From Gracilaria domingensis (Eukaryota > Rhodophyta > Florideophyceae > Gracilariales > Gracilariaceae): a stretch of 41,735 bases of DNA. Each line of letters starts with the position of its first letter. Position 1 is the stretch's first letter. The notes beneath the pieces are model-generated. The model saw only the letters and a program-made list of their open reading frames with translations. It was not told the DNA's origin and did not search any database. Positions 1-23,229 of the stretch are shown here, piece by piece. The position numbers were made by a program, and so were the translations under genes. The stretch spans positions 1 through 41,735 of the forward strand of contig VCMS01000451.1 of the NCBI GenBank assembly GCA_022539475.1, given 5' to 3'.

Positions 1-434
1 TCCCTGAGGAGTACTCAATCCGTCGTCACGGCATTTTCTTATCTATTTATGTTTCATTTCCGTCTTACGGCTTTCGCTACTCTGCCTACATTGTAGGTTT
101 GTTCTATTCGTCTCGGGAGTTTTCCCGCTTATCGCGAGTCAGTGCTCCGCAATGCGGCTCGTTTGTTTGATCTTTTGTCGTCCCATACCGTTGGGCTGGA
201 TACCCCACTCGCTGTGGCTCGCCGGAACCATCCGGATACCTACGCCGATTCTACCCCTTCTACCTCCGACTGCACGCCCAGATCGGGGCCACCCGGATTT
301 ACACCCGGCTCGTGTTGGCCCTATCGGAGGGTTCTGCCGCTCGACTGCCCTTCACAGGGAGCAGGGCCTGAACACCCTGAGGTGCTCGTCCGCGACGCGG
401 TTTGTTGTTTTCCCGTCGAGGGTTTTGCACCACA
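1..434 (+). repeat. 5' LTR of element A (R-U5 part, cut by window start)
   Basis: Direct copy of 10913-11350. From about 215 to 434 the two copies are essentially identical. In the first ~215 bases there are about a dozen differences, many of them one-base indels in homopolymers, which suggests a poorly polished contig end rather than age. It ends in CACCACA just before the primer site. Confidence 0.92.
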
Positions 435-436
435 AC

Positions 437-458
437 TGGTCTCTCGACCTAGAATCGG
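437..458 (+). other. Primer-binding site of element A
   Basis: Two bases after the LTR end, 22 bases starting TGGTCTCTCG are complementary to a plausible tRNA 3' end. The complement reads as CCA, discriminator A, a 7-base acceptor strand, a 5-base T-stem and a T-loop close to the TTCGATT type. The match therefore runs through the T-loop, longer than the usual 18 bases. I cannot name the tRNA. Element D carries a closely related site. Confidence 0.75.
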
Positions 459-596
459 CTTTATTGGCCAACAATCGTTGGAGCTGGTTCGTTTGTTTGG
501 AGCCCAGATAGTTGGGAATATCCGTTCTTACGGTTCTCTCATTGTCCGTTTTCGGAAGTTGTTTTGGTTGCCATTGGCCGACTGTGTCGGTGAACG

Positions 597-2605
597 ATGT
601 CGTCCCGTCGCAGGAGTAGCGCGCCACGTGCCGCTTCTGTGCCCGGTTCGTCCGGTTTGCCGGCAAGTTTGCCTCCGTTGCCGAAAGACGCACTGGAGGT
701 CCCAGGCAATGGCGACCCGAAACCGGCTTCCCGGGGCCGCCGTTCTGATAACGGGACCCCACCCACTCGTGGGCCAACCGAGACCGCACCTGCGGCTGAT
801 GCCGCCGCAGCGGTTGACGTTATGTCGTCGCGGTCCGACGAGTATACCCTCCGTGAATTAGAGGCTCAGGTTCGCATCCTGCAGAACTCCCAAGTGGGCC
901 TCATCCGGGATATTACGAAACTCCGGCAACGGCTCGATGAAGCCGGTGTCCGGGATGTTTCGAGCGACGTCCGTGTTTTACGGTCTGATGTCAACCAGAT
1001 TATGGAACACCGACAGGTGTCGGCTGGTCTGCACGAGCAGGCTGCCGCACGCCTGGACCGCCTGGCTACCCGTCTGGAGACGGTCGAGCAAATCATCGTA
1101 TCTGATGCTGTTGCGCCGGGAGCCCCGGTTCTGAGGGTTCTCAGCACTCGCGCCGTTCCCGGGATCGTCCGGCAAAGAAGAAGGTCAAGGTTGAGTCTGA
1201 CTCGTCTTCTTCATCCTCTTCTGATGAGGAGGGCCCCAAAAAGGGGTCGTCTACCGACTCTTCGGACAGCGCGGAAGAGCGCTCTCGCTATCGTGCATCC
1301 CGTTCGCGGGCTACTGAAGCCACTTCTGGTGTTGCACGAGGCCGTACGAAAGGACGGAGACACCTCGGATTGAAGGAGTTGAAGCCGACAAACTTACTGT
1401 ATCGGAAGCTACTATCTTACCGATATTATCGGCTTGATGACACGACGCCACAGAGGACCCCACGTGGGACTGGCAAAGTGCGAAATCATCTCCGACAAAT
1501 GGAGCTCACGCTAAAGCCCCACAAGTTCTCTGGGGAAGATCCAATTCTTGTCTTGGATTTTCTTAGCCGCTTCGTAGCGGAAGCCGATGTACTTCGGATG
1601 AGTGAGGCACAGGCCTACATCGCGCTGCCGTACTTTTTGACGGGTGTAGCCGAAGATCAATTCAATTCGGTTCGTGGGTCGTCTCGCGCCTCCGAAGGAG
1701 GAGTTACGTGCTGGCCGGAAGCGGTACAATATCTCCTGCGCTCTTACGCGACAGGCAATGCGATACAAGGTGCCATACTCGCGCTACGAGACACGAAGCA
1801 AGGAGCCGAAGAGTCGGAAACCGTTTATTCGACCCGCCTCAATAAGGCTTTCCACAGATGTGGCAACGTGTTCTCCGCAGCCGAGCGGTGTACGATGTTT
1901 GTTGATGGACTGGACCGATCAATTCGGACGTTGGTAGCCCATTATCGGGAGAACAAACGCCGGATTACCTATCTGGAACTCGTTCAATTTGCCCAAGCGG
2001 AGGGAGATGCAGCTCGAGCACGCACTGGTATCAAGACGCGCACGCGCCGACTCCTTCATGTAGAAGGCCGAGACTCCTCACTGCCTCATTCGCGAGGTTC
2101 TGTTCAAGGGGGTTATGATAACCTGCACCTGTTACAGGACGATGTTTCAATGCCGAGTTCGGAATTGCCGTCGACGACGGAGCAGTCTACAGTAGACGGA
2201 GACCCCGCTCTGTACGCCGGACGTCAAGTCCCGGCATTGCCCGTGCCGCACTCTGGCGGATATCGAAGCCAACGCCCTGGATGGAGGGACCCGTACCCTC
2301 CTCGACAGGAGCGCCGGCCGCCCAACGCGGATCTTCTTCGTCACCTTATTTGTCATACCTGTTACAGGCCAGGGCACATCGCTCCGAATTGCTTAATGCC
2401 CATACGGGATATGGCGAAGATCGTGCCTCAGTATGAGTCGTTGACGCCCGCCGAGCGGGAACGTGTTCCCGACAAATCGTACCTTCGTGCGAAGGCGGAG
2501 ACTCTGCCTGGGAACCAGGAAACGGTGCCACCGAATGGTGGAACTGTAGCCGCCCCTGCGGAATCGCAACCTCTGCAGATTGGCGGCGACGCTCAGAAAA
2601 ACTGA
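597..2605 (+). CDS. Gag polyprotein of element A (one frameshift)
   Basis: Structural particle protein. It starts at the ATG at 597, 162 bases after the LTR. Order: basic and Pro/Ser-rich N-terminus; a predicted coiled coil (heptad-like Leu/Ile/Val around 870-1100); then, after a one-base frameshift near 1100-1160, a Lys-rich stretch and a Ser/Asp/Glu tract (about 1185-1275); a capsid-like domain (about 1500-2050, with YFLTG and CWPEAVQYLLRSYA); and one CCHC zinc knuckle, CHTCYRPGHIAPNC, at about 2350-2390. The frame used after the shift is open continuously to the TGA at 2603, so the apparent TTG start at 1370 is not a real start. The capsid region aligns with element C gag. Confidence 0.85.
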
Positions 2606-2632
2606 GCAAGGGAGCCTCCAGCAATAGAGAGG
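2596..2632 (+). promoter_or_regulatory. Candidate -1 ribosomal frameshift site at gag/pol junction
   Basis: The pol frame is -1 relative to gag and opens at the gag stop. G AAA AAC immediately precedes the TGA, and a 5-bp stem (GCCTC at 2614, GAGGC at 2628) follows about 11 bases later. The same GAAAAACTGA occurs at the element C gag end (29187-29196), followed by a CCCC/GGGG stem. The first slippery triplet is imperfect (GAA rather than AAA), so this is a candidate only. Confidence 0.45.
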
Positions 2633-5600
2633 CGCCCCCAGCGACGGGGTTTAGTGCGCCTGAGGCTGAGAAGCCTCGCTCCCCGGTCACAATCCTTTCG
2701 AGGACACTGGCCACTGCAGACGTGGACTCTGAGCACCTTGGTGTCTTGCGTCGCCCGTGGATACGGTCTAAGAACAGCCGGTTCCCGGATAGAGTCCTGG
2801 TCATGGCGAAACGTAACTACAAAGTTTACGCCGACCTGGGTGTTTCCGACCAGTACATGGTTCGGCAGTTGTCCGTGCTCGATACAGGAGCTAGGCCAAA
2901 TTTCTTGGTTGAATCGATGATTCCGCCGCACTTGCGATCTCGCATTCGTGCGGCGACGCAGATTGACATAGCGGATGCGAACAATCGGCCACTTTCGACT
3001 GTGGGAGTAATAGACCTGCTCGTCAGGCTTGGCCACTACGTGGCGAAGCTCATTTCTTGGTTTGCAAGCAACTCGCTGCGCCGGTTATCCTCGGCTGCGA
3101 CTTCTGTGACCGCTTCGTCGATGCAATTCGACCGCGGAAGCGAACCATCGAAATGGAAGATGGGACTACTGTACCGATCGTTCGGCGTCCCCTACGCCGG
3201 GCTCTGAAGAAGCAAGTCCCTTTGCCTGCGGCACAGAAGCCTACAGCCGATGAACGGAAGTCTACAAAGCTCCGAGTAGCTCGGCCCATTTCCATCCCGC
3301 CTGAATCACAGGTCTGGGTTACTGTGACCTCCCCACAATGTGGCTTACAAACGGTACAACCGTTGCCTGCGTTACAGGAGAAGCATCAGCTTGCCCTCGC
3401 TAATGGGATTGTTTTCGTCGAACCCGAGAAGCCTTTTCAGGTGCTGGTTGCGAACTTCAGCCGTTTTTCTCAACGGTTGGTTAGGAGCCAAGTTATTGGT
3501 TCGTTGCTTCCGCACCCTGCGGCTATAGTGCCTACTCAGGTTTCTATTGCCGAGGTTCTCGGAATCCTCGAAGCTGAGGAGGGGGAGGCGGAACGGAACA
3601 ATTCCGAAACGACTGGACCGAACAGTTCGTCGGAAGATGCTACGCCGACTTCGTCGGATGCGAATAACCGCAGCCTGTCGAAGGAAGCGTTGCCGACCTC
3701 GTCGGGCAGTAATGATACAGACCTGAGTGCTGCTGACACGAAGGATAAGGCAGTACAGGAACTGGAGTCTCTGGATCTTGAACATGTCCCAGAGACTCAC
3801 CGCGATAAATTGCGGCACATGCTTGAGGAGTTCACGCCCATGTGGGATGGCACTCTGGGTAAGATTGGTATTACCGAACATCGGATTGATTTGCTACCGA
3901 ATACTCGGCCCATTTCACAGCACCCTTACAGGGCAGGACCGACAGCTCGGCAGGAGGAGAAAGCTCAAGTTGAGAAGATGCTCCGCGCTGGAGTTATCGA
4001 CCCGGCTCAGTCACCTTGGGCATCGCCGGTAGTGCTCGCGCCCAAAGCTGATGGGTCTTGGCGATTTTGCATCGATTACCGCAAGCTAAACGCGGCTACG
4101 GTCAAGGATGTGTATCCTATCCCACGAATGGATGAATGCATCGATTCGTTGGGCGACGCGAAAGTGTTCACAACCCTAGACGCGAATTGGGGCTATTGGC
4201 AAGTTCCCGTGAGGGCTGAGGATCGTGACAAGACAGCCTTCGTTTGTCATGAAGGATTGTACCGATTCAATCGGATGCCCTTTGGGTTAACGAACGCGCC
4301 AGCCACCTTTCAACGAGCTGTGGATATTTTGCTAGCCCGCTTTAAGTGGAAGACTTGCCTGGTATACCTGGATGACATCATTGTCTACTCCAGCAACCTG
4401 GATGAGCACTTGACCCACGTACGGGATGTGATGCGAGTCCTACGCGATGCAGGCATTACGCTCAAGCTCAAGAAGTGTGAGTTCTTTACCGAAACCGTCA
4501 GGTATCTCGGCCATGTTATCCGTCCGGGACGGCTTTCGATTGACGAAGTACGCGTGAAATCCCTCAAAGAGGCTAAGCATCCGAGGACGCAGACGGAACT
4601 CCGATCTTTTCTCGGCTTGTGCAATGTGTATCGCCGCTTCATTCCGAACTTCGCGGATATCGCTGCACCTCTGAACGAGCTTCTTCGCAAAGGACAGCCA
4701 GTCGATCTGGAAGAATTCGACGACCGCAAGGTCGCGGCTTTCTCGTCGCTCGTGGACGCGGTGACATCGCCACCTGTTTTATCCCTGCCTAGGGCTGGTT
4801 TGCCATATGCAGTAGATACGGATGCGAGCGACTACCAAGTCGGCTGTGCCCTATTCCAGACCACCAATGATGGCGAGCGATTGCCAATTGGGTATTGGTC
4901 AAGAAGCCTCAACGTTCACGAGAGGAATTACTCGGTATCCGAGAAGGAGTGCTTGGCAGTTGTCTGGGCGTTACAGAACTGCGGCCCTATCTTATGGGGA
5001 CCCGCTTCATTGTTCATACCGATCATTCGGCATTACGCTGGCTACTCTCTATAGCAGAGCCATCTGGCCGCTTGATGCGGTGGAGACTTCGCTTGTCGGA
5101 ATTCGATTTCGAAATCCGTTACAAGAAAGGACTCCTGAACACTCAGGCTGATGCACTGTCCCGCTTGGAAACAGCGGCTGAAGCTGCGCCAGTCGATGAT
5201 CTGGAGATACCGTGCTTCCTCGTGGAAGACGGCTCGAGCGATGCCGATGAAGAATCGGAAGGATGGGACATCTACGATGCTGTTTTAGCCGTGTCAGACA
5301 CGCAACCCGAACCGGGCTCTTTCGTACCGATCAAGCCGGAGGAACTCATCCGGGAGCAGCACACCGACCGTTTTTGTACGGAGATTCGTAGTCGTCTAAA
5401 CGGTGGAGCACAGTTGCCTTTCGTCGAGAACGACCAAGGATTTCTAATCCGAACTGTCGGAAACAGGCCACAGATTGTGGTTCCGCACTCACTTCAGTCA
5501 CGAGTACTGCATTTGTCGCACTATGCGAAGTTGTCAGCCCCCCTGGTGGCAGGAAGTTGTACTACACCTTACGGAAGGACTTTTACTGGCCAGCAATGGC

Positions 5601-6506
5601 TTTCGACGCGTATGCCACTGTTCGTGATGTTCTGACTGCGCGAAGAACCGCGTCAAGCTCCATAAGTATTCCAAGAAGTTGGCACTATTCCCTGCTAGGG
5701 CTCCACTGGAGTTTGTGGCGATCGATCTACTCGGCGAGTTTATTCGCACCCGCCGGGGAAACCGGTTTTTGCTTGTTATCACCGACCGCTTTTCTAAGCT
5801 GGTACGGACTGTGCCTTTAAAGAAGGTTACTGCTAGTGCGGTCGCCCAAGCTTTCGTTACTCACTGGGTTTTTGTCTACGGACCGCCGATTGACTTACTA
5901 TCGGATAATGGACCGCAGTTCACGGCTAAGTTCTTTCAGGACGTATGCCGCATCTTGCGGATCCAAAACTGGTTTACGACAACATATCATCCCCAGAGTA
6001 ATGGGCAGGTTGAGCGTTTTAACCGCACGATGCTCAACGCATTGCGGACGTTTGTTGCCGAGCATCCGTCGGAATGGGATCAGTACACCGATGCGGTGAC
6101 TTATGCCTACAATACGCAGGTTCATCGCACGACTCGAATCTCGCCGTTCGAGCTTGTGCTATCACGCGTCCCACCTTCGGTGGCTATCGAGCCACAGCCA
6201 ACTTTGGATAAGTTTCCGTCGCCCCGTCTACACAGGGACGCCTGGAAGGACTGGCTTAAGAACTTTATCCCTACAGTTGGGCAGCATATCGCTAAGGCCC
6301 AGGCCGCATACAAGCGGAATTTCGACGCTAGAGTGCGTAAGAATGCCCCTCAGATCAGGGAAGGTAGCTTTGCCTTCGTACGGAAGGAGTACTACAACCC
6401 TGAAAAGGAGAAGCGCCACAAGCTTTCTCCTATCGTGGACGGCCCGTTCCGGGTTATTGCTGTCACCGACACAACGGTTGTCCTTGATATCAAGGGAGAG
6501 CACTAG
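2602..6506 (+). CDS. Pol of element A: protease, reverse transcriptase, RNase H, integrase (frameshifted)
   Basis: Replication and integration polyprotein, -1 relative to gag. Protease has the DTGA active site at 2881-2892. RT has FCIDYRKLN, LDANWGYWQVP and the catalytic YLDD at 4365-4376. RNase H starts near AVDTDASDYQVGCALF (about 4809) and contains TDHSALRWLL. Integrase has an HHCC zinc domain (about 5515-5660), then catalytic D (about 5719), D (about 5904, LLSDNGPQF) and E (about 6009, NGQVERFNR). One-base shifts break it near 3050, 4980, 5545 and 5635. Comparison with the C copies supports a lost base at the first site. It ends at a TAG (6504) in frame with the downstream tail, where C has a sense codon. 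Confidence 0.9.
3576..3588 (+). other. Internal polypurine-tract-like sequence, protease-RT linker
   Basis: GAGGAGGGGGAGG, nearly the same as the 3' polypurine tract at 10481. It lies in the coding linker between protease and RT. Both C copies have the same kind of tract at the equivalent place (30336-30349 and 39066-39080). It could prime internal plus-strand synthesis, or simply encode an E/G-rich linker. Confidence 0.45.
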
Positions 6507-8132
6507 CGTTTGTCGCTAGATCGCATAACGCCTGCGCCAAAGCCTGTTTCGCAGGATTCGCTACCGTCATCGTCGGCCCCTACCGCACCCACTGTGGAAA
6601 CAGCCGTCGAAACGGAAACAGACGCCGCGGCGGGTACTCGTACTCAACCGTCTGTGTTGCCGCATCCGGATCGCGGACTTGCTCATTTGCCTGCTAAGCC
6701 GGAATCTGACCGGTCGGTCTCCAATGCCGCACATGTGCACACGCGGATAAGGGCCCCTATGGGGATACTCGCCGCCACCCCCGACACTCCCACTGAGGAG
6801 GGGGAGGAGGCAGGTCGTTCTTTTTCGTTGTCGCCGTCGTCGACGGAGTCGCCTTCGCAGGCCTCTGTATCGCACGCAAGTCGTGATGAATGCACGTCAA
6901 CGCGCGACACACAGCCGGAGAGCCGGAAAGAAGAGAACGACGCGCAGCTACCGCGGAAGCCTCAAGAAGAGGAAGATCACTCTCGCTCACCACCACCGTC
7001 GCGAACGGAGTTACGTTTGCAGGCCCAAGAACGGGAACACAGTACCGATGTGATACGTGATTTGCAGCCGGAAAGCCGGAGGGATCGCACAGTTTCGCGG
7101 AGGCCTTCTGAGAAGGACGCCACCTCGGTGACGATTGCAGCCGGAAGACCGGAAGAGGAGGACGCGCCGTTACCACGGAAGGCTGAGGTGGAAGGCACCA
7201 CTATGGTGAATCGCAAAGCCGGAAGTCCGGAGAAAGAAGAGTTAGTTCGAAAAAACCGTGCTGTTACGGCAGACCCGACTTCGGGAGATTTTAGTGCAGC
7301 ACCGAGTGCCAAAGCCGTCAAAAAGACGGAACCAACCACCAGAGTGGCGAACAGTCAAGCCACAGCAAGTGGGCAGCACTCAAGCACTGACGACGCGTGC
7401 ACGTCGCGCCAAGTGTCGAGCTCCGTGGGAGATCCGCCTCCAACCGAGGATTACAGTGCGCAAGCCGGGCACGTGCCAGCCACAGACCTGGCGCCGCCTA
7501 AAAACGGTTCAAAAAATTCCGAATTTGAATCGGCCCTTGACAGCCATGCAAAGGCGCAGGTGTCGCAAACCGCAGCGAGCGGCGAACCGCCGCCACGGCA
7601 CGTGCCAGAACACCACTCGCTGGCTCACCGCTCTGTGGACCGTTCACCGTCGCAACGGGAGATTGTGCCGGAACGCCGGAAGCTCGCTATTCGAGAAGAC
7701 CGAAGCACGGTCACAGCCCAGCAGCATGGGGAGAAGAACCAGGAATCTGGAAGCATGGTGGTCAGGAAAGTACCATGGTCACGGAGACCAACGCCTGGCG
7801 TACAGGATGTACTGCCGTCAGGACGGAAGCCGATCACGAACGACGATGCCCACGACGGGAGAAGCGACGACTACGCCTCGAAAGAGGATTCTTCAAGCAA
7901 GCCGCATACAGAGCGGAGTGTTCTCGATGAGGAATATGTCATTGACCGTCTGGTAAGTCACGGCTACGCCCCTGACGGGGAACTACTGTATCGAGTCCGT
8001 TGGTACGGCTACGCCTCCTCAAAGGATACGCACGAGCCCATTGAGCACTTGCCTCGCTCGAAGGTCTTGCAGTACCACCGTCGCACACGGACACCGATAC
8101 CGGCTACGCTGGACAAGGCCCAAGTGGGTTGA
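6507..8132 (+). CDS. Disordered C-terminal extension of pol ending in a chromodomain
   Basis: Same frame as integrase, directly after the TAG at 6504-6506, so originally or by readthrough part of one polyprotein. The first ATG-independent residues read LSLDRITPAPKP, matching the C sequence that follows integrase without a stop (ISLDRVALP). About 470 residues are rich in Ser, Pro, Glu and Arg with no fold I recognise. The last ~65 residues are a chromodomain: EEYVIDRLVSHGY, LLYRVRWYGY, HEPIEHLPRSKVLQYHRR (about 7929-8095). Chromodomains of gypsy chromoviruses are known to bind histone marks and guide integration. Repeated CCGG-N4-CCGG motifs occur within the coding tract (see findings). Confidence 0.82.
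   Translation, partial: RLSLDRITPAPKPVSQDSLPSSSAPTAPTVETAVETETDAAAGTRTQPSVLPHPDRGLAHLPAKPESDRSVSNAAHVHTRIRAPMGILAATPDTPTEEGEEAGRSFSLSPSSTESPSQASVSHASRDECTSTRDTQPESRKEENDAQLPRKPQEEEDHSRSPPPSRTELRLQAQEREHSTDVIRDLQPESRRDRTVSRRPSEKDATSVTIAAGRPEEEDAPLPRKAEVEGTTMVNRKAGSPEKEELVRKNRAVTADPTSGDFSAAPSAKAVKKTEPTTRVANSQATASGQHSSTDDACTSRQVSSSVGDPPPTEDYSAQAGHVPATDLAPPKNGSKNSEFESALDSHAKAQVSQTAASGEPPPRHVPEHHSLAHRSVDRSPSQREIVPERRKLAIREDRSTVTAQQHGEKNQESGSMVVRKVPWSRRPTPGVQDVLPSGRKPITNDDAHDGRSDDYASKEDSSSKPHTERSVLDEEYVIDRLVSHGYAPDGELLYRVRWYGYASSKDTHEPIEHLPRSKVLQYHRRTRTPIPATLDKAQVG
6795..6810 (+). other. Internal polypurine-tract-like sequence after integrase
   Basis: GAGGAGGGGGAGGAGG, within the disordered extension. 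Element C has AAGGAGGGGGAGG at the matching place (33443), although the surrounding sequence has diverged. Confidence 0.45.
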
Positions 8133-8500
8133 CCACCCACGTTCCTATTGAGCGCAGCCGTCTCGGACGGAATATGCCGCCTCATGCGGACAGTATTGCA
8201 TTACGCAAGAATATGCCGCGTCAAGCGGGTGTAACTAAGTTAACTTCATATCACTCAGCCGCCTCAGGCGGACCAGGCCGCTCTAAGCGGACAACTTTTT
8301 GCTGAACAAACATGCCGCGAAATGCGGAAGCCACTTACAGTGGAGAAGAAGATAAAGAAGAAAGAAGCCTAAGAAGAAGGAGAAGAAGCCAGGACACTGG
8401 AAGGAAGATTAAGAAGTTTTATCGCTACAGCCGCTTGTGCGGAAAAGTTACCCCTCTCTTGTGGGCCATTCGCAACAGCCTCAAACGAGGTATTGCCCAC
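8124..8500 (+). repeat. Mini-hairpin array of element A
   Basis: Non-coding stretch after the chromodomain. A 6-bp stem (GTGGGT/ACCCAC, 8124-8140) encloses the stop codon. Then come CCGTC/GACGG (8158-8170) and eight 13-base hairpins with 4-bp stems and exactly 5-base loops starting at 8177, 8196, 8216, 8259, 8278, 8298, 8315 and 8331. Five of these are CCGC-N5-GCGG with five different loops. Pitch is about 19-20 bases. More hairpins follow at 8389 (CCAG/CTGG) and 8431 (CCGC/GCGG), then a larger one, GTGGGC (8461) with GCCCAC (8495) enclosing CCTC/GAGG. Loop sequences vary while pairing is kept. Confidence 0.8.
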
Positions 8501-8501
8501 T

Positions 8502-8514
8502 GAGAAGGGGGAGA
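8502..8514 (+). other. Internal copy of the 3' polypurine tract
   Basis: GAGAAGGGGGAGA here is an exact 13-base copy of the 3' polypurine tract at 10481-10493, and the following GCAA-GACG resembles the start of the LTR. It lies between the hairpin array and the antisense ORF, so the antisense ORF is bracketed by two identical tracts. Confidence 0.6.
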
Positions 8515-8640
8515 GCAAGACGAAGAGTTTGAGCCAAGCCAGCACGGCTGGAGAAGTTTACCTCTAACTATTGAGTCGCCCCTCATCATCGGGGTCTATC
8601 GCGGACTACCGTAGCCCGTCGGGGATCGCGAGCCGAGGAA

Positions 8641-10440
8641 TTACGCGCCGGACGGTCCAGCACCTGGGGTGCTCCCACTACCGGGAGCCCCGGAGAAGCG
8701 CTGTGCCGCTATTGCTTGCAACTCCGACTCGTCGGTCACCGTATCGGGAACGGCCACTCCCACGCCTCGAAGGAAGTCGCGAATGACCGCCGCTCGCGGA
8801 GTGAGAGAAGAACTGCCGCCCACGGCGGATGCTACATCCTGAGCCCAAGGGCCGGTCGGAGCGGGAGCCGCTACAGCGGGTGGGTCAACGATCACGACTT
8901 CGTCGTCATCTCCCGTAGCGTCGGGCTCCGAGGTAACCCCCACTGGGCTCCCCTCATCCATGGGACTTCCTCCCTCTGCAGGGTCATCACCGTCATCGTC
9001 GACGTATACGAACCCACGCGGGTGCCCTTCCGGGATATATCGCTCCTCTCGGCGGCGACCAGCCGCCTCAGCGGGGCCAATTACCTCCCAAATCCATGGG
9101 TCAAAGTATACGAAGTCGCCGGCGTTGACGTTCCGTCCGGGAGAACGGTCCGACTGCCGACGGACTCCGTCGGAAACCTGACTAGCAGGCACCTCATTCC
9201 AGTCAATCTGGTCAATGACGTCCACTAACGCGGTGGCTTCGCGCGCATTGCGGACCGAGCCGAGCACTTCGGAGAGATCCAACGCTCGGATCGCTTGCCG
9301 GATGAGTTCCGGAATGAACCAAACTCGGTACGAATCATATGCCTCGATGAGGAGGAAAGCCGCAACGCGGACGGTCCATTCTGTTGCCAGGATGCTCCAC
9401 AGGCCGCGAGGCGGATCGTTCATGAAGTACGAGCCTATGTAAGTTAGGCAGGGCGGTAGCTCTACGTGACACCCTCGTGGGACTTCGACCGCAGGCCAGA
9501 ATGACGGCAGCGGCAGGTATCGCCCAGTATGGGAGTGACGCGCAATGCGTTCCACCTCCGTGCACTGGTACGGCACCAGTACCCCGAAGCGGGAACGCCA
9601 TTTCCTCTCGAATCGGAGGCCTTGATGAAATTGAGACCGTCCAGGACGGCGAAGGAACCGGAACTCGGCGCGAAGGATCGGCCGCGCCCACAGGATCAAC
9701 TCCTGCTGCGGCTGAACGGTATCCGAATATCGGTCAATCTCGTCCAACGCGTTGGCTAGGTGGTCGCCGTAGCCGACCTCGCCGAAAGTTCGGTAACGTG
9801 CCACATCGTATTGGTACTGTGCCGGCACCGGATGTTCGTTCGGAGCTCGGAAGTGTCGCGCGTACCCAATGCGGGCCATCTCATTGCGAGCGAATTGTCT
9901 CGTCTCGTTTCGACCTACAAACAGGCAGCTCAGTATAACCGCAACGCGGGCGATCCAGTCCCACGAACGGGTAACGTCAGCAGGAAGCCCACCAGGGAGT
10001 TGACCGTCGACAGCGTACGAGTCGACGAGCTCTGTATCCCGAACGGCTTCGGCGTCAAACCAGGGAGCCTGGGCAAAAAAGAAACTGTGCCGGTGCGGAT
10101 CCCGGATGCGTCACGCGCCTGCGGTAGGCCATCCACCCAGCGTAGCTGGCATCTCTGCGTTGAACCAATCCCACACGGGCGCGGGACCAGCCTGAGCTGG
10201 AGCGTGATCTTGTCCGGAAGAACCCGGCTGGGAGGTAGCCGCCGACTGCGGGAGAGGTACAGACCGGAACGGCGGGTTCGACACTTGCATGCGTGCCGTC
10301 GAGGACGGAGGGCCGTTCGGTGCGTTGGACATCGCGGAAGGGCTCGAGATGACGAGGTTCGCTACTGACACCGGAGGTGTTGGTGGCTGCGAACAGTTCT
10401 CGGCAGACCCGTCTTGGGAGACTTCCTTATATCCCTCCAT
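8641..10440 (-). CDS. Antisense accessory ORF of element A (function unknown, conserved in element C)
   Basis: A 600-codon frame on the opposite strand to gag/pol, between the chromodomain and the 3' polypurine tract, interrupted by one in-frame TGA at 10113-10111 (codon 110). Upstream is a Ser/Pro/Gln-rich N-terminus; the start could be 10440 or the internal ATG at 10332. The core (codons ~120-460) matches the antisense ORF of element C: APWF, QLPGGLP, RTFGEVGYGDHLA, RPILRAEFRFLRR, ELPPCLTYIGS, EAYDSYRVW, DRSPGR. The C-terminus is acidic, then Gly/Pro/Ser-rich, ending GAGPSGA. I see no signal peptide, clear membrane segment or known catalytic motif. No long sense ORF covers this stretch. Transcription would have to start in or near the 3' LTR. 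Conservation between diverged elements argues it is a real protein. Confidence 0.8.
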
Positions 10441-10480
10441 CGCGAGGCGTATCGAGCCGACGGAGTCGGTGTCTCAGCCT

Positions 10481-10493
10481 GAGAAGGGGGAGA
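10481..10493 (+). other. 3' polypurine tract of element A
   Basis: GAGAAGGGGGAGA directly before the LTR start TGTAGAGC. Element C has AAGGAGGGGGAGA at 37010-37022 before the same TGTAGAGC. Confidence 0.85.
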
Positions 10494-11350
10494 TGTAGAG
10501 CAAAACGCTCTTTGTGGGGATGCACCGAGGTGCTTTTCATAGATTGTTGATCCGTTACCGGCTTCGACACCTCAGGTTATGAGAGGCTACTGGGGTAGTG
10601 CCCCTATTTTGGGGTATGCCTAGGAAGGGTAGTATTTCTGCACACGTGTGCCAAGTTGGCCCGATCGCGCGGGCCCCGTGGCAAGCAGGCCACGGGGGCA
10701 CACCTGTAGTGTGTTGGCCGGCAGCGCCGGATAGTTAGATATTTTAATTGATATTTTCAAGTGCCGTATATAAGTGGCGGCACTTGCCGCCACTGTACGG
10801 GAAGTAAACCTCAACGAGGCCTTTGGCTCTGATCTTCTTGCTGCTTGCGCACGGTCACCAGCCCCATCCTGGGGAGTACCGCCGCAATTCCGGGCTGATC
10901 AACCAACCTCCGTCCCTGAGGAATACTAATCCGTCGTCACGGCACTTTTCTTATCTATTTTATTGTTTTCATTTCCGTCTTACGGCTTTCGCTAGTCTGC
11001 CCTACATTGTAGGTTTGTTCTATTTGTCTCGGGAGTTTTCCCGCTTATCGCGAGTCAGTGCTCCGCAGTGCGGCTCGTTTGTTGATCTTTTGTCGTCCCA
11101 TACCGTTGGGCTGGATACCCCCACTCGCTGTGGCTCGCCGGAACCATCCGGATACCTACGCCGATTCTACCCCTTCTACCTCCGACTGCACGCCCAGATC
11201 GGGGCCACCCGGATTTACACCCGGCTCGTGTTGGCCCTATCGGAGGGTTCTGCCGCTCGACTGCCCTTCACAGGGAGCAGGGCCTGAACACCCTGAGGTG
11301 CTCGTCCGCGACGCGGTTTGTTGTTTTCCCGTCGAGGGTTTTGCACCACA
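10494..11350 (+). repeat. 3' LTR of element A (857 bp)
   Basis: Starts TGTAGAGC after the polypurine tract and ends CACCACA, the point where identity with 1-434 stops. U3 carries a series of strong inverted repeats: GCACC/GGTGC (10522-10533), CCCC/GGGG (about 10600), a 12-base perfect palindrome at 10640-10651, a 9-bp stem with 6-base loop at 10674-10697, and CCGGC/GCCGG (10718-10730). A TATA box lies at 10767. R-U5 (from about 10803) is shared with the minus-strand LTR at 22271-22815, but U3 is not. Confidence 0.92.
10767..10809 (+). promoter_or_regulatory. Core promoter of element A LTR: TATA box, palindrome, initiator-like motif
   Basis: TATATAA at 10767-10773 overlaps a 10-bp perfect stem with a 2-base loop at 10773-10794, followed by AAGTAAAC at 10802, about 35 bases from the TATA box. 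The element D LTR has TATATAG and AAGTAAAC at the same distance. The start of R is probably near 10797-10805. Confidence 0.6.
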
Positions 11351-11997
11351 GACACCCCCCCTTCCTTGCCTCTCTCGCCTTTCTTCCTCCCTTTCCGTCG
11401 TCACCAACCTTCTTTCCTTTGGCAATCCTACCTTCCCTCAGCGCAGTCTGCGCCTCCCTGCCACCAACCTTTCCCCCTACATTTCCTTATTCCCGGCGGC
11501 CCGGTCTCCCGCCGTTCCCTACACAGTCGCCTTGTGCTGCCCTCCATTGGGCTCGTCCGCACATTGCGATCATATTTACAACCCCTTTTTCTCGGACGGA
11601 CGTGGGCAGTGTTACGCATTGCACTGGTTCCATTCCTGTCGCCACCTCGCCTGGTTGTTAGGTTTGTGGTGGTATCGACGACAGAATCGAACGCTTTAGC
11701 CCTGCCCTTTCTATTGTTCCGCCGACAGCCTTTGTGTTTTGGTCTGTTGGCCGCGCACTCTGTTGTTGTGTTGGCATTCGGCATCGAGCGCCGAAGCACA
11801 CTCTCGTTTAATTACTCTCCCCGCTTCCTGTTAGCGGACAGTTCCTACTATCTTGGGGTTATCTTGTCTGCTCCTGCAGGCATCTGAGCTACGTTAACTT
11901 GTCGCCCCTTTTGGGCTGGTGCTCTCGAGCATTTATTGTGTCGCTCTCCTTGGGTTTGTCACCACCCGCGCTGTTTCCCCCAAAAATGACGTCCACA
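11351..11997 (+). repeat. 5' LTR of element B (right part, interrupted by element A)
   Basis: Matches 20419-21064 and ends GTCCACA just before the primer site. Its left edge is the A insertion point. The tract is strongly pyrimidine-rich in its first ~250 bases. Confidence 0.9.
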
Positions 11998-13389
11998 TGG
12001 TACTCTCGAGGAGGGCCTGGCTCTCCTGATTCTGGTGTGATTTCCTTCGGTGGTTCTGCCGTCGACGTAAGGAAGTTTCTGTTTTACTTTGAGAATGTCG
12101 CTACCCCCAACGAAGAGGATAGTGTTCGGGCTATGAAGTTGCTCGGCTATCTTGAGGGGGAAGCGTTTGACTTCTACTATGACAACTATGCTGTTGATGG
12201 CTCTCTTTCGATTGAAGCAAAGGACTATCAGAAGGTGAAGTTCGCTTTGATCGAACGTTTCGGTGCAATCGAGGAACCGGCGGAGAGGATTCGCCGGGCA
12301 GTTTCGGCACGTTTAGATTACGTCGATCTGCTAGGGTCCCTGAAGAAGATGGACTCTTTCTTCGATCAGGCAGGTTTTAACTCGAAAGCTAAGTTCGGGT
12401 TACTACGAAACGCTGTCATGGAGTTTGCAGATCTTGCGCAGTTTGTCATATTCCGTGTAGCAGATGACTATGAATCCTTGAAGGTCCTCGTTAAGGACTT
12501 TGTTGGCGGAAAGAAAGCTCTCGGCTCGTATGGTACCCTCAACGCTTTCCCACCGGCGAAGCATATTCTTCAACGTGCTAAGGAACCTGCTCGTCCAAGT
12601 CCGCTGGAGTCGAAAGTGGATCACTTGGCTGACCAGATGGCACAGTTGCACCTCCTAGTGAAGAAGACTCAGAGTGCTGCGACTGCCATCGGACGTCAGG
12701 ATACGGAAAAAGTCTGTTCGTATTGCAGCCAACCCGGTCACTTTGCGGCACGTTGTGAGCTTAATCCACATCGTGGCACTCGATGTGGTAATTGTGGCAA
12801 GTTAGGTCACTCTATAGCTACGTGCTGGAGGAAGAATAACACCGATGTTGTGCGAATAGTTGCATTTGAAGGTGTGAAATCCGAATCAGAGAGAGAGAGG
12901 TTGCTGAGTGAGAAACGAGGTTCCCAGAACACAGGCGAGAACCAAGTCTCAGTTGTGATTGCTGACCCTTCAGATGATGAAGATCCCGTTACAACCGCAA
13001 AAAGAGACGCGGAAGGGGAGCCTCTGGCCAAGCAACCACGAACTGGCCATCTCTCAGGGATTTCACCCGTGATGTTCCCCGAATCCCATACCACCAGGAC
13101 TGCCTCTCAGCAAGCCAAAAACCCTCCCAAGGAGTCGACAAGACCTAGGAAGGGCACTGGGAAGAAGTCTAAGGGGAAGTCCCGGAGGGTGACGATCCAA
13201 GAACACGTTGGGAAATATAACATTTACGAGGAATTGGCGAGAGCCCCTTCTGGCATCACTTTCGGTCAATTAGTCCGCGGCGATGCGGACGAGGCCAAGA
13301 AAGACATTGGCGCATTCTTTCCGGAGGTCTTTCGTCAAGGCGTGTCAGTTACGCTCATACTCATTCACTCCCTCAGACTCTCAAAGTAG
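11986..13389 (+). CDS. Gag of element B
   Basis: Particle protein, about 467 residues from the ATG at 11986. I choose this ATG because the frame upstream runs through LTR leader sequence and the product then begins MTSTWYSRGG. The ATG lies 12 bases inside the LTR, so the LTR end and the primer site are both translated. A capsid-like helical region (about 12040-12560) is followed by two zinc knuckles, CSYCSQPGHFAARC (12715-12756) and CGNCGKLGHSIATC (12784-12825), then a Lys/Arg/Ser-rich tail. It ends at the TAG at 13387 and overlaps the pol frame by well over 100 bases in the -1 phase. I found no canonical slippery heptamer, so the junction is either programmed in an unusual way or damaged. 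Confidence 0.86.
   Translation: MTSTWYSRGGPGSPDSGVISFGGSAVDVRKFLFYFENVATPNEEDSVRAMKLLGYLEGEAFDFYYDNYAVDGSLSIEAKDYQKVKFALIERFGAIEEPAERIRRAVSARLDYVDLLGSLKKMDSFFDQAGFNSKAKFGLLRNAVMEFADLAQFVIFRVADDYESLKVLVKDFVGGKKALGSYGTLNAFPPAKHILQRAKEPARPSPLESKVDHLADQMAQLHLLVKKTQSAATAIGRQDTEKVCSYCSQPGHFAARCELNPHRGTRCGNCGKLGHSIATCWRKNNTDVVRIVAFEGVKSESERERLLSEKRGSQNTGENQVSVVIADPSDDEDPVTTAKRDAEGEPLAKQPRTGHLSGISPVMFPESHTTRTASQQAKNPPKESTRPRKGTGKKSKGKSRRVTIQEHVGKYNIYEELARAPSGITFGQLVRGDADEAKKDIGAFFPEVFRQGVSVTLILIHSLRLSK
11998..12009 (+). other. Primer-binding site of element B, inside gag
   Basis: TGGTACTCTCGA begins exactly at the base after the LTR terminal CA. Its complement reads as ...ACCA plus a 7-base acceptor strand. 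The match does not continue into a recognisable T-stem, so it is about 11-12 bases. It differs from the A/D site. Confidence 0.6.
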
Positions 13390-16300
13390 TGAATGTTACT
13401 GTCTATGGCACTAGTTCCCAGGCGTTGCTGGATTCTGGTGCTATCCCTAATCTTATGTCTATTGCGTTATGCAACCGGTTATCGTCGGAGATGAAACCGT
13501 CGAGTAGGAGGATTGTCGTTGCCGACGGAACCAAATCCTTAGTTCGCGGAAGCCTGCACGATGTTCCCCTCGAGTTTGGTTCTCTCCGCGTCCCGTTGGA
13601 TTTTCTGGTCGTTGAGAAGCCTCCCTTCAATGTGATTGTTGGCTGCCCTGCTCTTGAGTCACTCCAAGCCTGCTTGGACCTGGGTACTCAGCAAGTTTCT
13701 ATGCAATTCGACGGCGCATCTGTTGTTTTGCCTCTCGATTACCATCGCCCTGGTGTGGTGCTCGACGAAGAGGATGAACACACCGACAGTGAGGATTTCA
13801 CTTCCGCTTCAGAGTCGTTCTTCTCTGAGAGTTCAGAGAGCGACGACGAAGGATACGCGATCGCTTTCTCGAAGGGCAAAGTTGACACGTCAGTATATGC
13901 TTTGAATACTATGAATGAAGAACAAAACTCCTTACAACCACCCGAAGAGGAATCCACGAATGGGTTGGAGGATATTGGTGCTACGAGTCTCGGTCAGGAA
14001 ACATCCTCCCCTGCTGATCCTCAGGATTTGGAGGGAGGTATGAGACGATTGAATGTGAATGATGTTGAACCAGAACCTGCTATTACTACTCCTCACGCCC
14101 CTGGGGAAGCAAATAGAGAATTTGAGAACACTGAAGAATCGGAGGAAAGCCCAGACGACGACGACTCCGAAGGCTCTCCATCAGATGAAGAGCATGAACG
14201 CGATCTCGTTGTCCCAGTCAGGGATGACGTTGTTCTTCTACGAGCCGAAGATGTGAGACGCCAACCTGATTATCTTATCTTTCGAGTCTACCGTCGTTAC
14301 CCTCAGTCAACTGACAGAAACCAGCTCCACCCTCACACCTCCGAACTTCCGTATGGAGAAATGGGTGTCCTGGAGCTGAATAACGGTTCCGAACCAGTGG
14401 TTCGTTTCGGAGTAGGCTGGCCTATACCTGCACCGGCTGATAAAGAACCCTTCGCGGTCCCATCACAAAGTGAAGCTCATGAAGACCATGTCATGGTTAT
14501 AAGTCTTGACCACAGCGACGATGAGGCCGATAACCAGATGAGCGGTCTAGCTGAGCCGAATGACGATCAGCGCCACTCGGTCTATCACGCCGCGAATCCC
14601 TCGTCTTTTCAGAGTTCCATGACAGACACTAGCCTTCAACCACCTGACCCTCCCCTTTTGTCATCTGGCAATGATGGAGAAAATGAAGAGAAGAGCTCTG
14701 CAAGGGACGATGAAGAAGATGAAGATTGTGTAGAAGTAGAAGCAGGAGTTCATGAAGCAGAAGTAGAAGTAGAAGAGGAAGTGGCGAATAACGGAAATGA
14801 AGATGATCATGAAGAGGATGAAGATGGTTCCTCACCAGAAGAAGTCGAGCTGTCTGGTACCCCTCTCTACCGCAACCCTGTCCTCACCATCCCGATTACG
14901 GACAAGGTCACTTTGCTACCACCTGAAGAAGGGGAACTTATCAGCGACTTTCTTTTGGTTCGTGTCCAGATTCGGTACCCTGTACCCACTCCAGCGCACC
15001 CCCCTCACCTCAGCGTGCACAACATGCCTTTTGGTCGTACCGGGCTACTGGAGGAGGATGACGACGGCCGCTACGTGATTGCTTTCGAGGAAGAGCTTCC
15101 TCAAGAAGAGTTGTCGACGCAGGTCCCCCCACCACCTGTTAGAGAGTTGGAAGATCAACCCGACCCCTCGCAAACAGAGCCGCGTACCACTGGCTCTGGT
15201 GAAGGACACTCTACTTCACATGATAGTGAGCCGAAGGTTGCGTGTCCCGCTCCTGAGATCGAATACTCCCTGTTAGGTCCTGTCGCGTTTGATGGCAAGG
15301 GTCGTATACTGGATCGAAGAGATTACCCTCCTGACACGAGTCACGAAGAAGTCATCCTCAAAAGGCTTTCACACTTGCCCAGCAGGGAGCAACACGAACT
15401 ACTTCGTGTTTTACTTGACCTTGGGGTGGTCGCCTGGTCTTTGTACGATCTTAGACCGGCAGATGTACCAGTCATGCATGAATTCTCACTGACGACCCAG
15501 ACTCCGATACACTCAAGAGTTCGTAGGCTTCCGCCGCGACATGACGAAGTCGTCAAGAAGAAACTCGGTAAAATGCTTGACGCTGGGATAATCAAACCTT
15601 GTACATCGCCATGGTCCTTTCCGATCGTCATTGCGACCAAAAAGGATGGCAAGCCAAGGTTCTGTGTAGACTACCGAGCTCTGAACCGAGTTATGAAAGC
15701 GGACAGATGGCCCTTACCTCATATTGAACAAATCTTTGATGACTTAGGCGGCTGTTCGTTTTTCACTACGCTTGACCTTTTCTCTGGGTACTGGCAGATC
15801 AGAATGTCACCTCGGTGTAAGGAGATGACCACCTTCGTTTGCCGTCAAGGAACCTATCAGTTTGAGGTCATGCCCTTCGGCTTCATGAATGCCCCCTCAA
15901 CATTCCAAAGAATGATGGACTCTATCCTCAACAAGTATCCGTTTGTAAGGGTCTATCTGGACGACGTGGTTATCTATTCAAAAACCTTAGAGGATCACGT
16001 CGAGCACATCAAGTTGGTAGTAAGGACAGTTGCCTCCCATGGGTTGAAGCTGAAGATCTCTAAGTGCGACTTTGCCCATTCCAAGATTGAACTGCTCGGA
16101 CATGTTGTCGACCAGAGCGGAGTTGCAGTGGACGTGAAGAAAATAGAGGCCATCAAGGCGGCTCCGATCCCTAAGACAACCACTGAACTGAGGAGCTTTC
16201 TTGGGCTTGCTGGCTACTACCGCCGGTTTATCAAGCACTTTGCCAAAACTTCGGCAGTTCTCTATGCAGGAACGTCCGGAAATCGGAAACTAGTGTTCAA

Positions 16301-19034: not shown

Positions 19035-19078
19035 TCAAAACCGTAAGTTCATGGTCGCCCAGGCGTAGCGACCGATGA

Positions 19079-19111
19079 GTTGGGGAGTGTGTGGAGGCGG
19101 ATGCAGGGGAG
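19079..19111 (+). other. Polypurine tract region of element B
   Basis: Two purine tracts precede possible LTR starts: GAGTTGGGGAG before TGTGTGGAGG (19088), and GATGCAGGGGAG before TGTCCCGCC (19112). A start at 19090 (TGTGGA) would pair as an inverted terminal repeat with the LTR end TCCACA. The true start needs the 5' LTR outside this window. Confidence 0.55.
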
Positions 19112-19263
19112 TGTCCCGCCACCCCAGGGACACTCCCGAACAATATTTTTCTATATCTCCGACACCTTCCACCCCTGGACTGCGCCGTCACTCCCGCCGT
19201 CTGCGCCCACCGCTACGCGCCGTGCACTGCGACGCGGCGGCAAGGATGATGAGGTTTCGCGCC

Positions 19264-19374
19264 GCGCGCCGCGGCGCGCCCCCGACGGAGATGAAGAAGT
19301 CGCGCGCCGCTCGCTGCGGCGCGCCCGCCGCTAAGCAGGCTTTAAAAGCTCGCGCGCCGCACGTTGCGGCGCGC
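19264..19374 (+). repeat. Triple GC-rich palindrome in element B U3
   Basis: GCGCGCCGC pairs with GCGGCGCGC three times: a perfect 16-base palindrome at 19264-19279, then 9-bp stems with 5-base loops TCGCT (19302-19324) and ACGTT (19352-19374). The spacers differ. Further GCGC-rich pieces follow at about 19468-19492. Confidence 0.75.
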
Positions 19375-19579
19375 CAGCTGCAGGGTCTGAAAAGGAACTT
19401 GCGCGCAGCACCTGACGCTGGAGGACAGTGAGTGGAGCGCTCTCTTCGGGGAGCTCAGAAAGTTGTGGCGCGCTCTTTCGCGCGCGTCGCAACACATACG
19501 AGCAGGGGATACAAATCAATTTAATCGAGAAGCAGGAGTTCTGTGACAAAGAGGCAATCGAAGATACGAGAAAGGGATA

Positions 19580-20038: not shown

Positions 20039-20350
20039 CGCTATCTAAATAAGCAAATGGAGCGTGACAGGTCACTATGCCAGCAAAGCACCAACCAGCC
20101 GCAAATTGACAAAATGTATCGACAGAAGCGAAAATCGTGGCGCTCCGTGGGACATGGATAAGACCTGAACATTCCAACAGAAGACATAAGCCGCCAAGTG
20201 AGGATTGGCGAGCCACCGACCACCGACCTACATAACGAAGAGCCGTGCGCTGACATCATTACATGTTATGGATGGTGAGCAGCACTAGGGTATTTAGGAC
20301 TAGACGGTGAGCAAGTTACAACTTAGGGTATACGAACCACAAGAATTGTA

Positions 20351-22268: not shown

Positions 22269-22270
22269 AT

Positions 22271-23214: not shown

Positions 23215-23229
23215 TCCCCCTCCTGAGGA
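23215..23229 (-). other. 3' polypurine tract of element D/E
   Basis: The minus strand reads CAGGAGGGGGA followed by TGTGTAG, the same layout as the A and C tracts before their LTRs. Confidence 0.7.

What the first reader, a model, noticed from the sequence alone, without database searches (positions are those of the whole stretch)
8124..8343. Array of 13-base mini-hairpins with a ~20-base pitch and variable sequence
Eight hairpins with 4-bp stems and exactly 5-base loops start at 8177, 8196, 8216, 8259, 8278, 8298, 8315 and 8331. At equal base frequency a given position matches this form about once in 256, so ~0.65 are expected in this stretch. Five are CCGC-N5-GCGG with different loops, and others keep the fold with other stems (TTGC/GCAA, TTTG/CAAA, CCAC/GTGG). 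Pairing rather than sequence seems selected. Possible roles: Gag binding and packaging signal, RNA condensation, or resistance to silencing with stems too short for Dicer.
Basis: seen in the sequence. Interest (0 to 1): 0.9.

Follow-up and report, generated by a model that had tools for sequence, protein, structure and literature searches.

The report
Family-tagged mini-hairpins fill algal retrotransposons
The hairpin array is real, but it is only the densest patch of a tiny folded tag that recurs about every 60 bases along an entire family of mobile elements in a red seaweed, with different outer letters in different families and signs of selection, which suggests that each family marks its own genetic material.

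Summary
In detail: all eight hairpins exist, plus three more; 11 stem-4/loop-5 hairpins in 220 bases against 0.86 expected, 0 of 5000 shuffles reaching 11. The array lies between the pol stop and a conserved antisense ORF of a Ty3-type chromodomain element (E1) in a 78-Mb genome, probably a Gracilaria-like red alga (name inferred). It is not a local curiosity. E1 and relatives carry about 2-3 times the expected short hairpins along their length, coding regions included; a different Ty3 element nested beside it (E2) and nine host chaperonin loci do not. Stems are mostly 4-5 bp and Watson-Crick, loops 3-8. The outermost pairs are a family tag, though not an exclusive one: CCNN..NNGG in E1 (189 against 16 expected), ACNN..NNGT in E3 (88 against 11.5). 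Tagged stems are conserved between same-tag subfamilies (8-18% changed against 32-37% outside, at all codon positions) but not between different-tag families. One of two polymorphism tests supports selection. Best reading: a dispersed self-recognition signal read on a folded single strand, perhaps for Gag packaging. The reader protein, and whether RNA or cDNA is read, are unknown.

The parts
8124..8138 (.). overlapping hairpins GTGG-N5-CCAC (8124) and GGGT-N5-ACCC (8126), at the pol stop codon
8158..8170 (.). array hairpin CCGT-CTCGG-ACGG
   Evidence: stem kept in the four copies listed, with loop changes in two
8177..8189 (.). array hairpin CCGC-CTCAT-GCGG
8196..8208 (.). array hairpin TTGC-ATTAC-GCAA
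8216..8228 (.). array hairpin CCGC-GTCAA-GCGG
8259..8271 (.). array hairpin CCGC-CTCAG-GCGG
   Evidence: absent from the L030 list
8278..8290 (.). array hairpin CCGC-TCTAA-GCGG
8298..8310 (.). array hairpin TTTG-CTGAA-CAAA
8315..8327 (.). array hairpin CCGC-GAAAT-GCGG
8331..8343 (.). array hairpin CCAC-TTACA-GTGG
8389..8551 (.). further tagged hairpins after the purine tract: CCAG-GACA-CTGG (8389), CCGC-TTGT-GCGG (8431), CCTC-AAAC-GAGG (8479), CCAG-CACGG-CTGG (8539)
1..11350 (+). element E1 (5' LTR cut by the window edge): 184 non-overlapping CCNN-loop(3-6)-NNGG hairpins, 16 per kb
1..438 (+). E1 5' LTR (its right-hand part)
   Evidence: 1-434 is 97% identical to 10913-11350, and 1-438 is 95% identical to 22707-22267
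597..2605 (+). E1 ORF 597-1373 and gag ORF 1370-2605
   Evidence: no Pfam match; gag 60% identical to the E3 gag ORF over 311 aligned positions; the name gag is by position and zinc-knuckle-like motif (recalled)
3057..8132 (+). E1 pol in several open frames: RT and RNase H, integrase, chromodomain at the C-end
8641..9879 (-). antisense ORF (412 aa), conserved but with no Pfam domain and no solved-structure match
10803..11350 (+). E1 3' LTR, with E2 abutting its end (insertion inferred)
11351..21064 (+). element E2, a different Ty3 element with LTRs at both ends and no overall hairpin excess (natural control)
27834..37000 (+). element E3 (frames broken), range used for the counts; its first ~110 bases belong to the right LTR of 'mid'. 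ACNN..NNGT hairpins 88 against 11.5 expected
21614..27944 (-). 'mid', an LTR-bounded element in which no pol was detected; internal part CC 38 against 4.1 and CG 29 against 5.7; orientation inferred from its ORF only
37636..41735 (+). second, incomplete relative of E3 with the same hairpin excess (1.2-3.5 by 500-base block)

Best explanation
The array is a dense patch of a dispersed, family-specific hairpin tag. Each element family fills its whole length with 11-15-base hairpins: 4-5 Watson-Crick pairs, a loop of 3-8, a preferred outer dinucleotide pair (CC/GG in E1, AC/GT in E3) and, in E1, usually an unpaired base just outside. Shown here: existence, extent, geometry, family tag and absence from E2. 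Supported here: selection on the tagged stems. Inferred: the hairpins are read on a folded single strand (loops of 0-2 are barely enriched) by a binder that checks the base of the stem and its pairing, not the loop. Most likely the binder is made by the element itself (Gag, or the antisense-ORF protein), and many weak sites together mark the element's own RNA, or its cDNA, for selective packaging and compaction in virus-like particles. Families that diverge change tag, which would keep competitors and parasitic copies out.
For: Shuffle tests. In E1 excess at stems of exactly 4 and 5 bp (265 against 126, 99 against 31); 3 bp 509 against 484, 6 bp 15 against 7.9, 7 bp or more 3 against about 2.4; none for one G.T pair (381 against 365). 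Excess over synonymous-codon shuffles in 6 of 6 E1 ORF pieces (1.9-2.4), not in 3 of 3 of E2 (0.8-0.9). Tags: E1 CC 189/16.3, E3 AC 88/11.5, mid stretch CC 52/5.4, E2 CC 10/8.6. Third pair of E1 CC stems: AT 29/2.5, TA 30/2.8, CG 33/4.2, GC 97/6.8 against GT 4/4.8, TG 7/4.4. Loop lengths: E1 CC 30, 52, 69, 38 at 3-6 against 4-5 expected each, 19 against 12 at 0-2; mirror repeats not enriched in E1. Host: 9 chaperonin loci 0.8-1.4. Relatives: 12 of 12 loci 1.9-3.3, tags differing by family. Conservation between same-tag subfamilies: L017 to L004 OR 0.15 (p 1.5e-16), L030 to L004 0.22 (6e-14), L018 to L004 0.19 (8.5e-11), L004 to L030 0.49 (7e-5), L058 to E1 0.21 (5e-5), L049 to E3 0.57 (0.002); different tags 1.12 and 1.10, not significant. 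Stratified by base and codon position OR 0.15-0.58. 20 E1 copies: shared variants 12 in stems/127 outside, private ones 40/157, p 0.0035. An LTR element without detected pol carries the tag too.
Against: No binding partner, expression or packaging data. The same polymorphism test in the E3 family shows nothing (AC stems: shared 12/108, private 70/538). In the RT-integrase region only 5 of 12 same-tag or overlapping-tag comparisons reach p below 0.05, though all 12 odds ratios are below 1. Conservation is asymmetric: E1-type hairpins are less conserved in relatives than the reverse (L004 to L025 OR 1.03, reverse 0.10; E1 to L055 0.82, p 0.22). Tags are leaky: in E3, AT, CC, CT and TC stems are also 3-4-fold enriched. 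G.T pairs are not accepted although A-T pairs are, odd for plain RNA folding. In the equilibrium fold of the array several hairpins lose to longer-range pairing, and mean folding z is -0.7 in E1 against -0.25 (sense) and -0.5 (antisense) in E2. Strand asymmetry is weak, so sense RNA is not singled out.
Confidence: 0.42

Rival explanations
1. Structure-only shielding, like genome-scale ordered RNA structure: short hairpins everywhere hide both the sense RNA and an antisense RNA from duplex formation, small RNAs or dsRNA sensors, with stems kept too short for Dicer. Watson-Crick-only pairing would follow if both strands must fold.
For: Pervasive and position-agnostic when all families are pooled; few stems beyond 5-6 bp; G.T at most 1.3-fold on either strand, like other mismatches; a conserved antisense ORF suggests antisense transcripts; folding-energy difference 7.5% in E1 against 2.1% in E2.
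Against: Does not explain the preferred outer base pairs, their change between families, or conservation only where tags agree. Energy is only modestly lowered.
Confidence: 0.2
2. The hairpins act at the single-stranded DNA stage: they fold in cDNA during reverse transcription and are bound or measured there (cDNA compaction, protection, or control of second-strand synthesis).
For: G.T is treated like a mismatch while A-T and G-C are both accepted, as expected of DNA hairpins; the stem motif is strand-symmetric; loops of 3-5 suit DNA (recalled).
Against: Loops are slightly A-rich in the sense strand of E1 (298 A against 246 T, p 0.016) and L055, but not significantly in the other 6 of 8 families; hairpins might obstruct second-strand synthesis; no retroelement precedent recalled.
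Confidence: 0.16
3. A mutational by-product: hairpin-templated copying errors by reverse transcriptase or a host polymerase convert near-palindromes to perfect ones, with no function.
For: Watson-Crick-only pairing and short loops fit templated repair; the excess was found in one lineage of Ty3 elements and in 'mid', not in E2.
Against: Conversion should make paired double changes common and leave the per-site rate unchanged; instead tagged stems change 1.7-4.7 times less than surroundings and paired changes are few (5 of 118 and 4 of 105 pairs; none at CC stems among 21 E1 copies). Tags differ between families with RT 83-88% identical, and selection-like contrasts appear.
Confidence: 0.08
4. 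The 8124-8343 array has a separate local role, for example 3'-end formation or stability of the two convergent transcripts (pol sense, antisense ORF), beyond the element-wide tag.
For: It is the densest patch, with 13-base units dominant (10 of 15 maximal hairpins of 11-18 bases), lies between two convergent ORFs and is kept in recombinant subfamilies.
Against: No pol or antisense-ORF protein is coded there, so it may simply show the tag free of coding constraint; the E3 region 34720-35060 has, by eye, fewer and less regular hairpins.
Confidence: 0.1

Closest known systems
Dispersed packaging signals of ssRNA viruses (MS2 and others; review PMC6281560, passages read)
   Same: Many stem-loops spread through the RNA with a shared recognition feature, variable around it.
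   Different: In MS2 the recognition motif is in the apical loop plus a 5' bulged A; here loops are free and the tag is the outer base pairs. About 184 copies per element, tag differs between sister families, pairing strictly Watson-Crick, no binding shown.
[quoted passage not shown] PMC7642675, passages read)
   Same: Pervasive short-range pairing throughout coding sequence, with positions and pairings poorly conserved between relatives.
   Different: GORS is described as agnostic about which bases pair and is measured as a folding-energy excess; here particular outer pairs are preferred, stems mostly stop at 4-5 bp and the energy excess is modest.
RNA genomes of Ty1/Ty3 LTR retrotransposons (PMC11381356, abstract and section list seen; PMC4974528 and PMC5454406, abstract openings in the search listing)
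   Same: Same class of element; structured genomic RNA; short palindromes proposed for dimerization.
   Different: The Ty3 abstract describes a well-folded core and a candidate dimerization palindrome at the 5' end; the abstract mentions no element-wide repeated hairpin tag (the body was not read).
LTR retrotransposons with antisense ORFs (for example plant Retand; recalled, not looked up)
   Same: Antisense ORF between pol and the 3' LTR.
   Different: No hairpin tag recalled for them; the protein here matched 8 proteins, one named (Gracilariopsis chorda), among 7997 scored candidates.

Membership tests
Ty3-type chromodomain LTR retrotransposon | RT, RNase H, integrase core and C-terminal chromodomain between LTRs | tested here: met
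   Pfam RVT_1, RT_RNaseH, rve and Chromo in order; LTR pair 1-434 and 10913-11350, 97% identical
Dispersed packaging signals | many dispersed stem-loops sharing a recognition feature | tested here: met
   E1 CCNN..NNGG 189 against 16.3; 184 non-overlapping; that it is a recognition feature is inferred
Dispersed packaging signals | recognition motif in the apical loop, as in MS2 | tested here: not met
   loops near background composition, with A slightly raised, and fast-changing in the pol C-terminal region; the tag is in the stem
Dispersed packaging signals | binding by the element's coat protein and effect on assembly | not testable with these tools
   needs biochemistry
Genome-scale ordered RNA structure | pervasive pairing with folding-energy excess over shuffled sequence | tested here: met
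   sense MFED 7.5 +- 1.6% in E1 and 4.7 +- 1.1% in E3, against 2.1 +- 1.2% in E2; antisense 5.8, 3.1 and 2.2%. Modest: with 120-base windows mean z is -0.72 in E1, -0.43 in E3, -0.25 in E2
Genome-scale ordered RNA structure | agnostic about which bases are paired | tested here: not met
   family-specific preferred outer pairs
Hairpin-templated mutation (quasipalindrome correction; recalled) | paired double changes common; no slowing of stem evolution | tested here: not met
Known RNA families (Rfam) | match to a covariance model | not tested
   no Rfam search was run; the units are 13-base hairpins of variable sequence

The most novel reading that the evidence does not exclude
A nucleic-acid self-recognition code: sister retrotransposon families in one genome each carry their own two-base-pair 'password' on nearly two hundred mini-hairpins, read by their own protein, so that an element's genome is recognised as self along its whole length, at the price of shaping its codons and even free protein linkers; families diverge by changing password, and pol-less elements travel by copying it.
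Probability: 0.33. Interest if true: 0.95.

Novelty: new variant of a known kind. Interest (0 to 1): 0.86.

Why it matters
How LTR elements tell their own RNA from thousands of others, and from rival elements, is not settled (my understanding, recalled). Here is a countable, family-specific signal in nucleotide sequence alone, strong enough (11-fold in E1) to be scanned for in any genome, and testable at once: tag against protein phylogeny, tag sharing by non-autonomous elements, protein binding to short oligonucleotides. It also shows protein-coding sequence, including a linker that otherwise changes almost equally at all three codon positions, held more tightly by hairpins than by its amino acids, a caution for dN/dS work on mobile elements.

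Tried and rejected
Composition or clustering artefact: rejected, because in E1 mirror repeats are not enriched (203 against 208), direct repeats barely (272 against 242), and the Watson-Crick diagonal stands out. Same-direction complements are raised (301 against 187), probably through the CC..GG clustering. A property of the whole genome: rejected, since 9 chaperonin loci give 0.8-1.4 (two of them with z near 3) and 6 of 8 arbitrary stretches 0.94-1.44; of the other two, L047 (2.42) holds, by eye, a gag relative of E1 and L046 (1.67) is unexplained. Plain dsDNA palindrome: not supported, since loops of 0-2 are hardly enriched. Positional conservation across all families pooled: not found. Sense-strand preference: loop A over T is significant in 2 of 8 families only (E1, L055); the G..A flank asymmetry in E1 (66 against 23, ratio 2.9) is close to what background trinucleotides predict (ratio 2.4, worked by hand). 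Antisense-ORF fold: AlphaFold mean pLDDT 63, no PDB match with E at or below 0.001. Relatives in viral and prokaryote contigs: none found with the few patterns used. One 1.3-kb Copia stretch: 39 against 26.4 (1.48), no CC excess, CA 8 against 2.2; too small to judge. Print: searches listed no paper whose title or shown abstract describes such a code; subscription papers are not held.

Choices that limit the counts: 12 RT loci were picked by eye for different scores from 150 listed of 1776 candidates, and several are near-identical (E1/L059/L060; L050/L057/E3; L051-L053/L056), so they stand for about seven families. One search used 9 of 15 sequences. One search used 20 of 30 E1-type copies; L011, L017, L018, L024, L025 and L027-L030 were left out as under 90% identical to L001 over the locus, and L019 for holding N. 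In some searches L004, L030, L017 and L018 stand for the rest of the 30; the comparisons reuse sequences and run in both directions, so they are not independent. In one search the E2 slice was roughly placed and not RT-aligned. In one search the first comparison of L081 failed on orientation and was redone. The unpaired base outside E1 hairpins (193 of 215) depends partly on how the hairpins were picked.
Full report
WHAT WAS CLAIMED AND CHECKED. All are there, with three more. Dinucleotide-preserving shuffles of the stretch give 0.86 stem-4/loop-5 hairpins on average and never more than 6 in 5000 trials; the stretch has 11. It is the densest 220 bases in the window. Within the array the step is 16-20 bases with one gap of 43.

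WHERE IT LIES. The window is G000:C451:1-41735 of a 77.9-Mb assembly in 680 contigs. Contig C680 carries groEL and a histidyl-tRNA-synthetase-like ORF in a 29%-GC stretch, like a red-algal plastid (the second gene name and the plastid reading are recalled knowledge). Of 120 integrase relatives listed (of 502), the four that bear an organism name are from Agarophyton chilense and Chondrus crispus, and the antisense-ORF protein has a 71% relative in Gracilariopsis chorda. Paper PMC10388701 (passages) gives 78 Mb for Gracilaria domingensis; the species name is only an inference. The array sits just after the pol stop (8132) of a Ty3-type element E1 with RT, RNase H, integrase and chromodomain, and before the 3' end of an antisense ORF (8641-9879). 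A second Ty3 element, E2 (11351-21064), abuts the end of the E1 3' LTR. Downstream are an LTR element in which no pol was detected ('mid') and two relatives of E1 (E3 and an incomplete copy).

THE PHENOMENON IS ELEMENT-WIDE. Counting 4-bp stems with loops of 3-6 in 500-base blocks, E1, E3, its neighbour and 'mid' mostly run at 1.5-3.8 times the shuffled expectation (the lowest blocks in them are about 1.2), whereas E2 mostly runs at 0.4-1.2, with 1.66, 1.62 and 1.39 in three blocks. Over the window the excess is greatest for loops of 3-5 and fades beyond 8. In E1 stems of exactly 4 and 5 bp are enriched 2.1- and 3.2-fold, 3-bp stems are not (509 against 484), 6-bp stems are 15 against 7.9 and longer ones 3 against about 2.4. 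When synonymous codons are shuffled, six E1 ORF pieces still hold 1.9-2.4 times too many hairpins, four of E3 1.8-2.5, the 'mid' ORF 2.25, and three of E2 0.8-0.9. Nine host chaperonin loci give 0.8-1.4; of eight arbitrary stretches six give 0.94-1.44, one 1.67 (L046, unexplained) and one 2.42, which by eye holds a gag relative of E1.

A FAMILY TAG. Sorting hairpins by their first two bases shows a code. In E1, 189 begin CC (and end GG) against 16.3 expected; in E3, 88 begin AC against 11.5; in the stretch containing 'mid', CC 52 against 5.4 and CG 35 against 6.9; in E2 CC is 10 against 8.6 and the largest excess is AA, 14 against 7.7. The tag is not exclusive: CT, CA, CG and AC are 2-3-fold enriched in E1, and AT, CC, CT and TC 3-4-fold in E3. 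With CC and GG fixed, the inner pairs in E1 are any Watson-Crick pair: third pair AT 29, TA 30, CG 33, GC 97 against 2.5-6.8 expected, while GT and TG stand at 4 and 7 against 4.8 and 4.4. At the fourth pair several mismatches are raised two- to fourfold (for example A.C 14 against 3.9) but G.T is not, which I cannot explain. Pooled over eight families the second pair is C-G 4.2-fold, and G.T in either direction is 0.9-1.3. By loop length, E1 CC stems number 30, 52, 69, 38, 22 and 19 for loops 3-8 against 3-5 expected each, and 19 against 12 for loops 0-2, as for a folded single strand. In E1 the base just outside is usually unpaired (193 of 215, partly by how they were picked), G..A most often. 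Element-wide there are 184 non-overlapping tagged hairpins, 16 per kb, against 1.2 per kb in E2.

OTHER FAMILIES. Twelve RT-anchored loci from the same genome all show the excess (1.9-3.3). Tags fall into groups: CC (E1, L055, L058-L060), AC (E3, L050, L057), AC with TC (L049), TC with CC and AC (L051-L053, L056), and a mixed, hairpin-richest one (L054). RT pieces are 83-88% identical to that of E1 in the three families aligned, so the tag changes while the enzyme stays similar.

IS IT SELECTED? With all families pooled, hairpin positions are not conserved. That hides a pattern: tagged stems tend to be conserved between families with the same tag and not between families with different tags. 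In the pol C-terminal region, CC stems of L017, L030 and L018 differ from L004 at 8, 11 and 9% of sites against 35-37% outside (p from 1.5e-16 to 8.5e-11); L004 stems differ from L030 at 18% against 32% (p 7e-5). Loops differ at 30-47%. For the RT-integrase region 12 comparisons of families with the same or overlapping tags (three of them with a looser test, C at the second or third base) give odds ratios of 0.21-0.88, five of 12 with p below 0.05 (L058 to E1, L049 to E3, L051 AC to E3, L051 CC to E1, L051 to L054), while the two different-tag comparisons give 1.12 and 1.10. Stratifying the C-terminal comparison by base and codon position leaves odds ratios of 0.15-0.58; outside stems all three codon positions change at 0.28-0.41, second positions least, so there the hairpins are held more tightly than the protein. 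Among 20 E1 copies, variants shared by two or more copies avoid tagged stems (12 in, 127 out) while private ones do not (40 in, 157 out; p 0.0035), as expected if selection acted while elements were active. In the younger E3 family the same test shows nothing. Copies of 'mid' give odds ratios of 0.42-0.82, two of six comparisons with p below 0.05. Conservation is lopsided: relatives' hairpins are mostly kept in E1, but E1 has more (L004 171 against L025 72 stem columns in the antisense-ORF part, 69 shared; odds ratios 1.03 and 0.10 in the two directions), so E1 gained or L025 lost many.

WHAT IT PROBABLY DOES. The tag, the free loop, the strict pairing and the steric loop minimum point to a binder that reads the base of a small folded hairpin. 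The element family is the unit that shares a tag, which points to an element-encoded reader. Packaging is the natural job for many weak sites along a retroelement genome. These last steps are inference. Whether RNA or cDNA is read is open: strict Watson-Crick pairing suits DNA or a need on both strands, and a conserved antisense ORF (45-52% identical between E1 and E3) makes antisense RNA likely near the array. Equilibrium folding does not favour every hairpin and the folding-energy excess is modest.

AGAINST KNOWN KINDS. Dispersed packaging signals (PMC6281560, passages) share the layout but use a loop motif in MS2; genome-scale ordered RNA structure (PMC7642675, passages) shares the spread and the turnover but is described as agnostic about which bases pair. 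The passages I read of neither describe a family-specific outer pair. Eight paper searches listed nothing like it. I rate it a new variant of a known kind, because dispersed stem-loop signals exist, and leave the stronger reading, a self/non-self password, as the novel case.

Noticed in passing
8641-9879 (-) and 35058-36979 (-): Antisense ORF conserved between E1 and E3 at 45-52% identity over aligned parts, with 8 database relatives (one named, Gracilariopsis chorda) and no Pfam domain or solved-structure match; a candidate reader of the hairpins.
   Followed up: partly
8341-8390: Purine-rich GAAGAA tract directly after the array; by eye a similar purine-rich spacer separates hairpins at 34760-34990 in E3. 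Possibly an internal polypurine tract.
   Followed up: no
L017, L018, L024, L027-L030: Recombinant-looking subfamilies: array and 3' part 97-100% identical to L004 where shown (L017, L018, L024, L028, L030), pol C-terminal region mostly 68-78% with one block of 48-64%, so the 3' module seems exchanged as a block.
   Followed up: partly
L025, aORF part: Has 9 CC hairpins where L004 has 22, at about 12% divergence, nearly all a subset; a snapshot of hairpin gain or loss.
   Followed up: partly
21614-27944: LTR-bounded element without detected pol, with CC and CG hairpins and an unknown 542-aa ORF; contains an E1-type LTR at 22267-22817 in reverse, and its right LTR abuts the E3 gag region.
   Followed up: partly
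L046 (G000:C8:100001-102500): Hairpin ratio 1.67 with a GC outer dinucleotide (16 against 6.1); origin unknown.
   Followed up: no
G000 contig C680: Contig with groEL and a hisS-like ORF in a 29%-GC stretch, probably the red-algal plastid genome.
   Followed up: no
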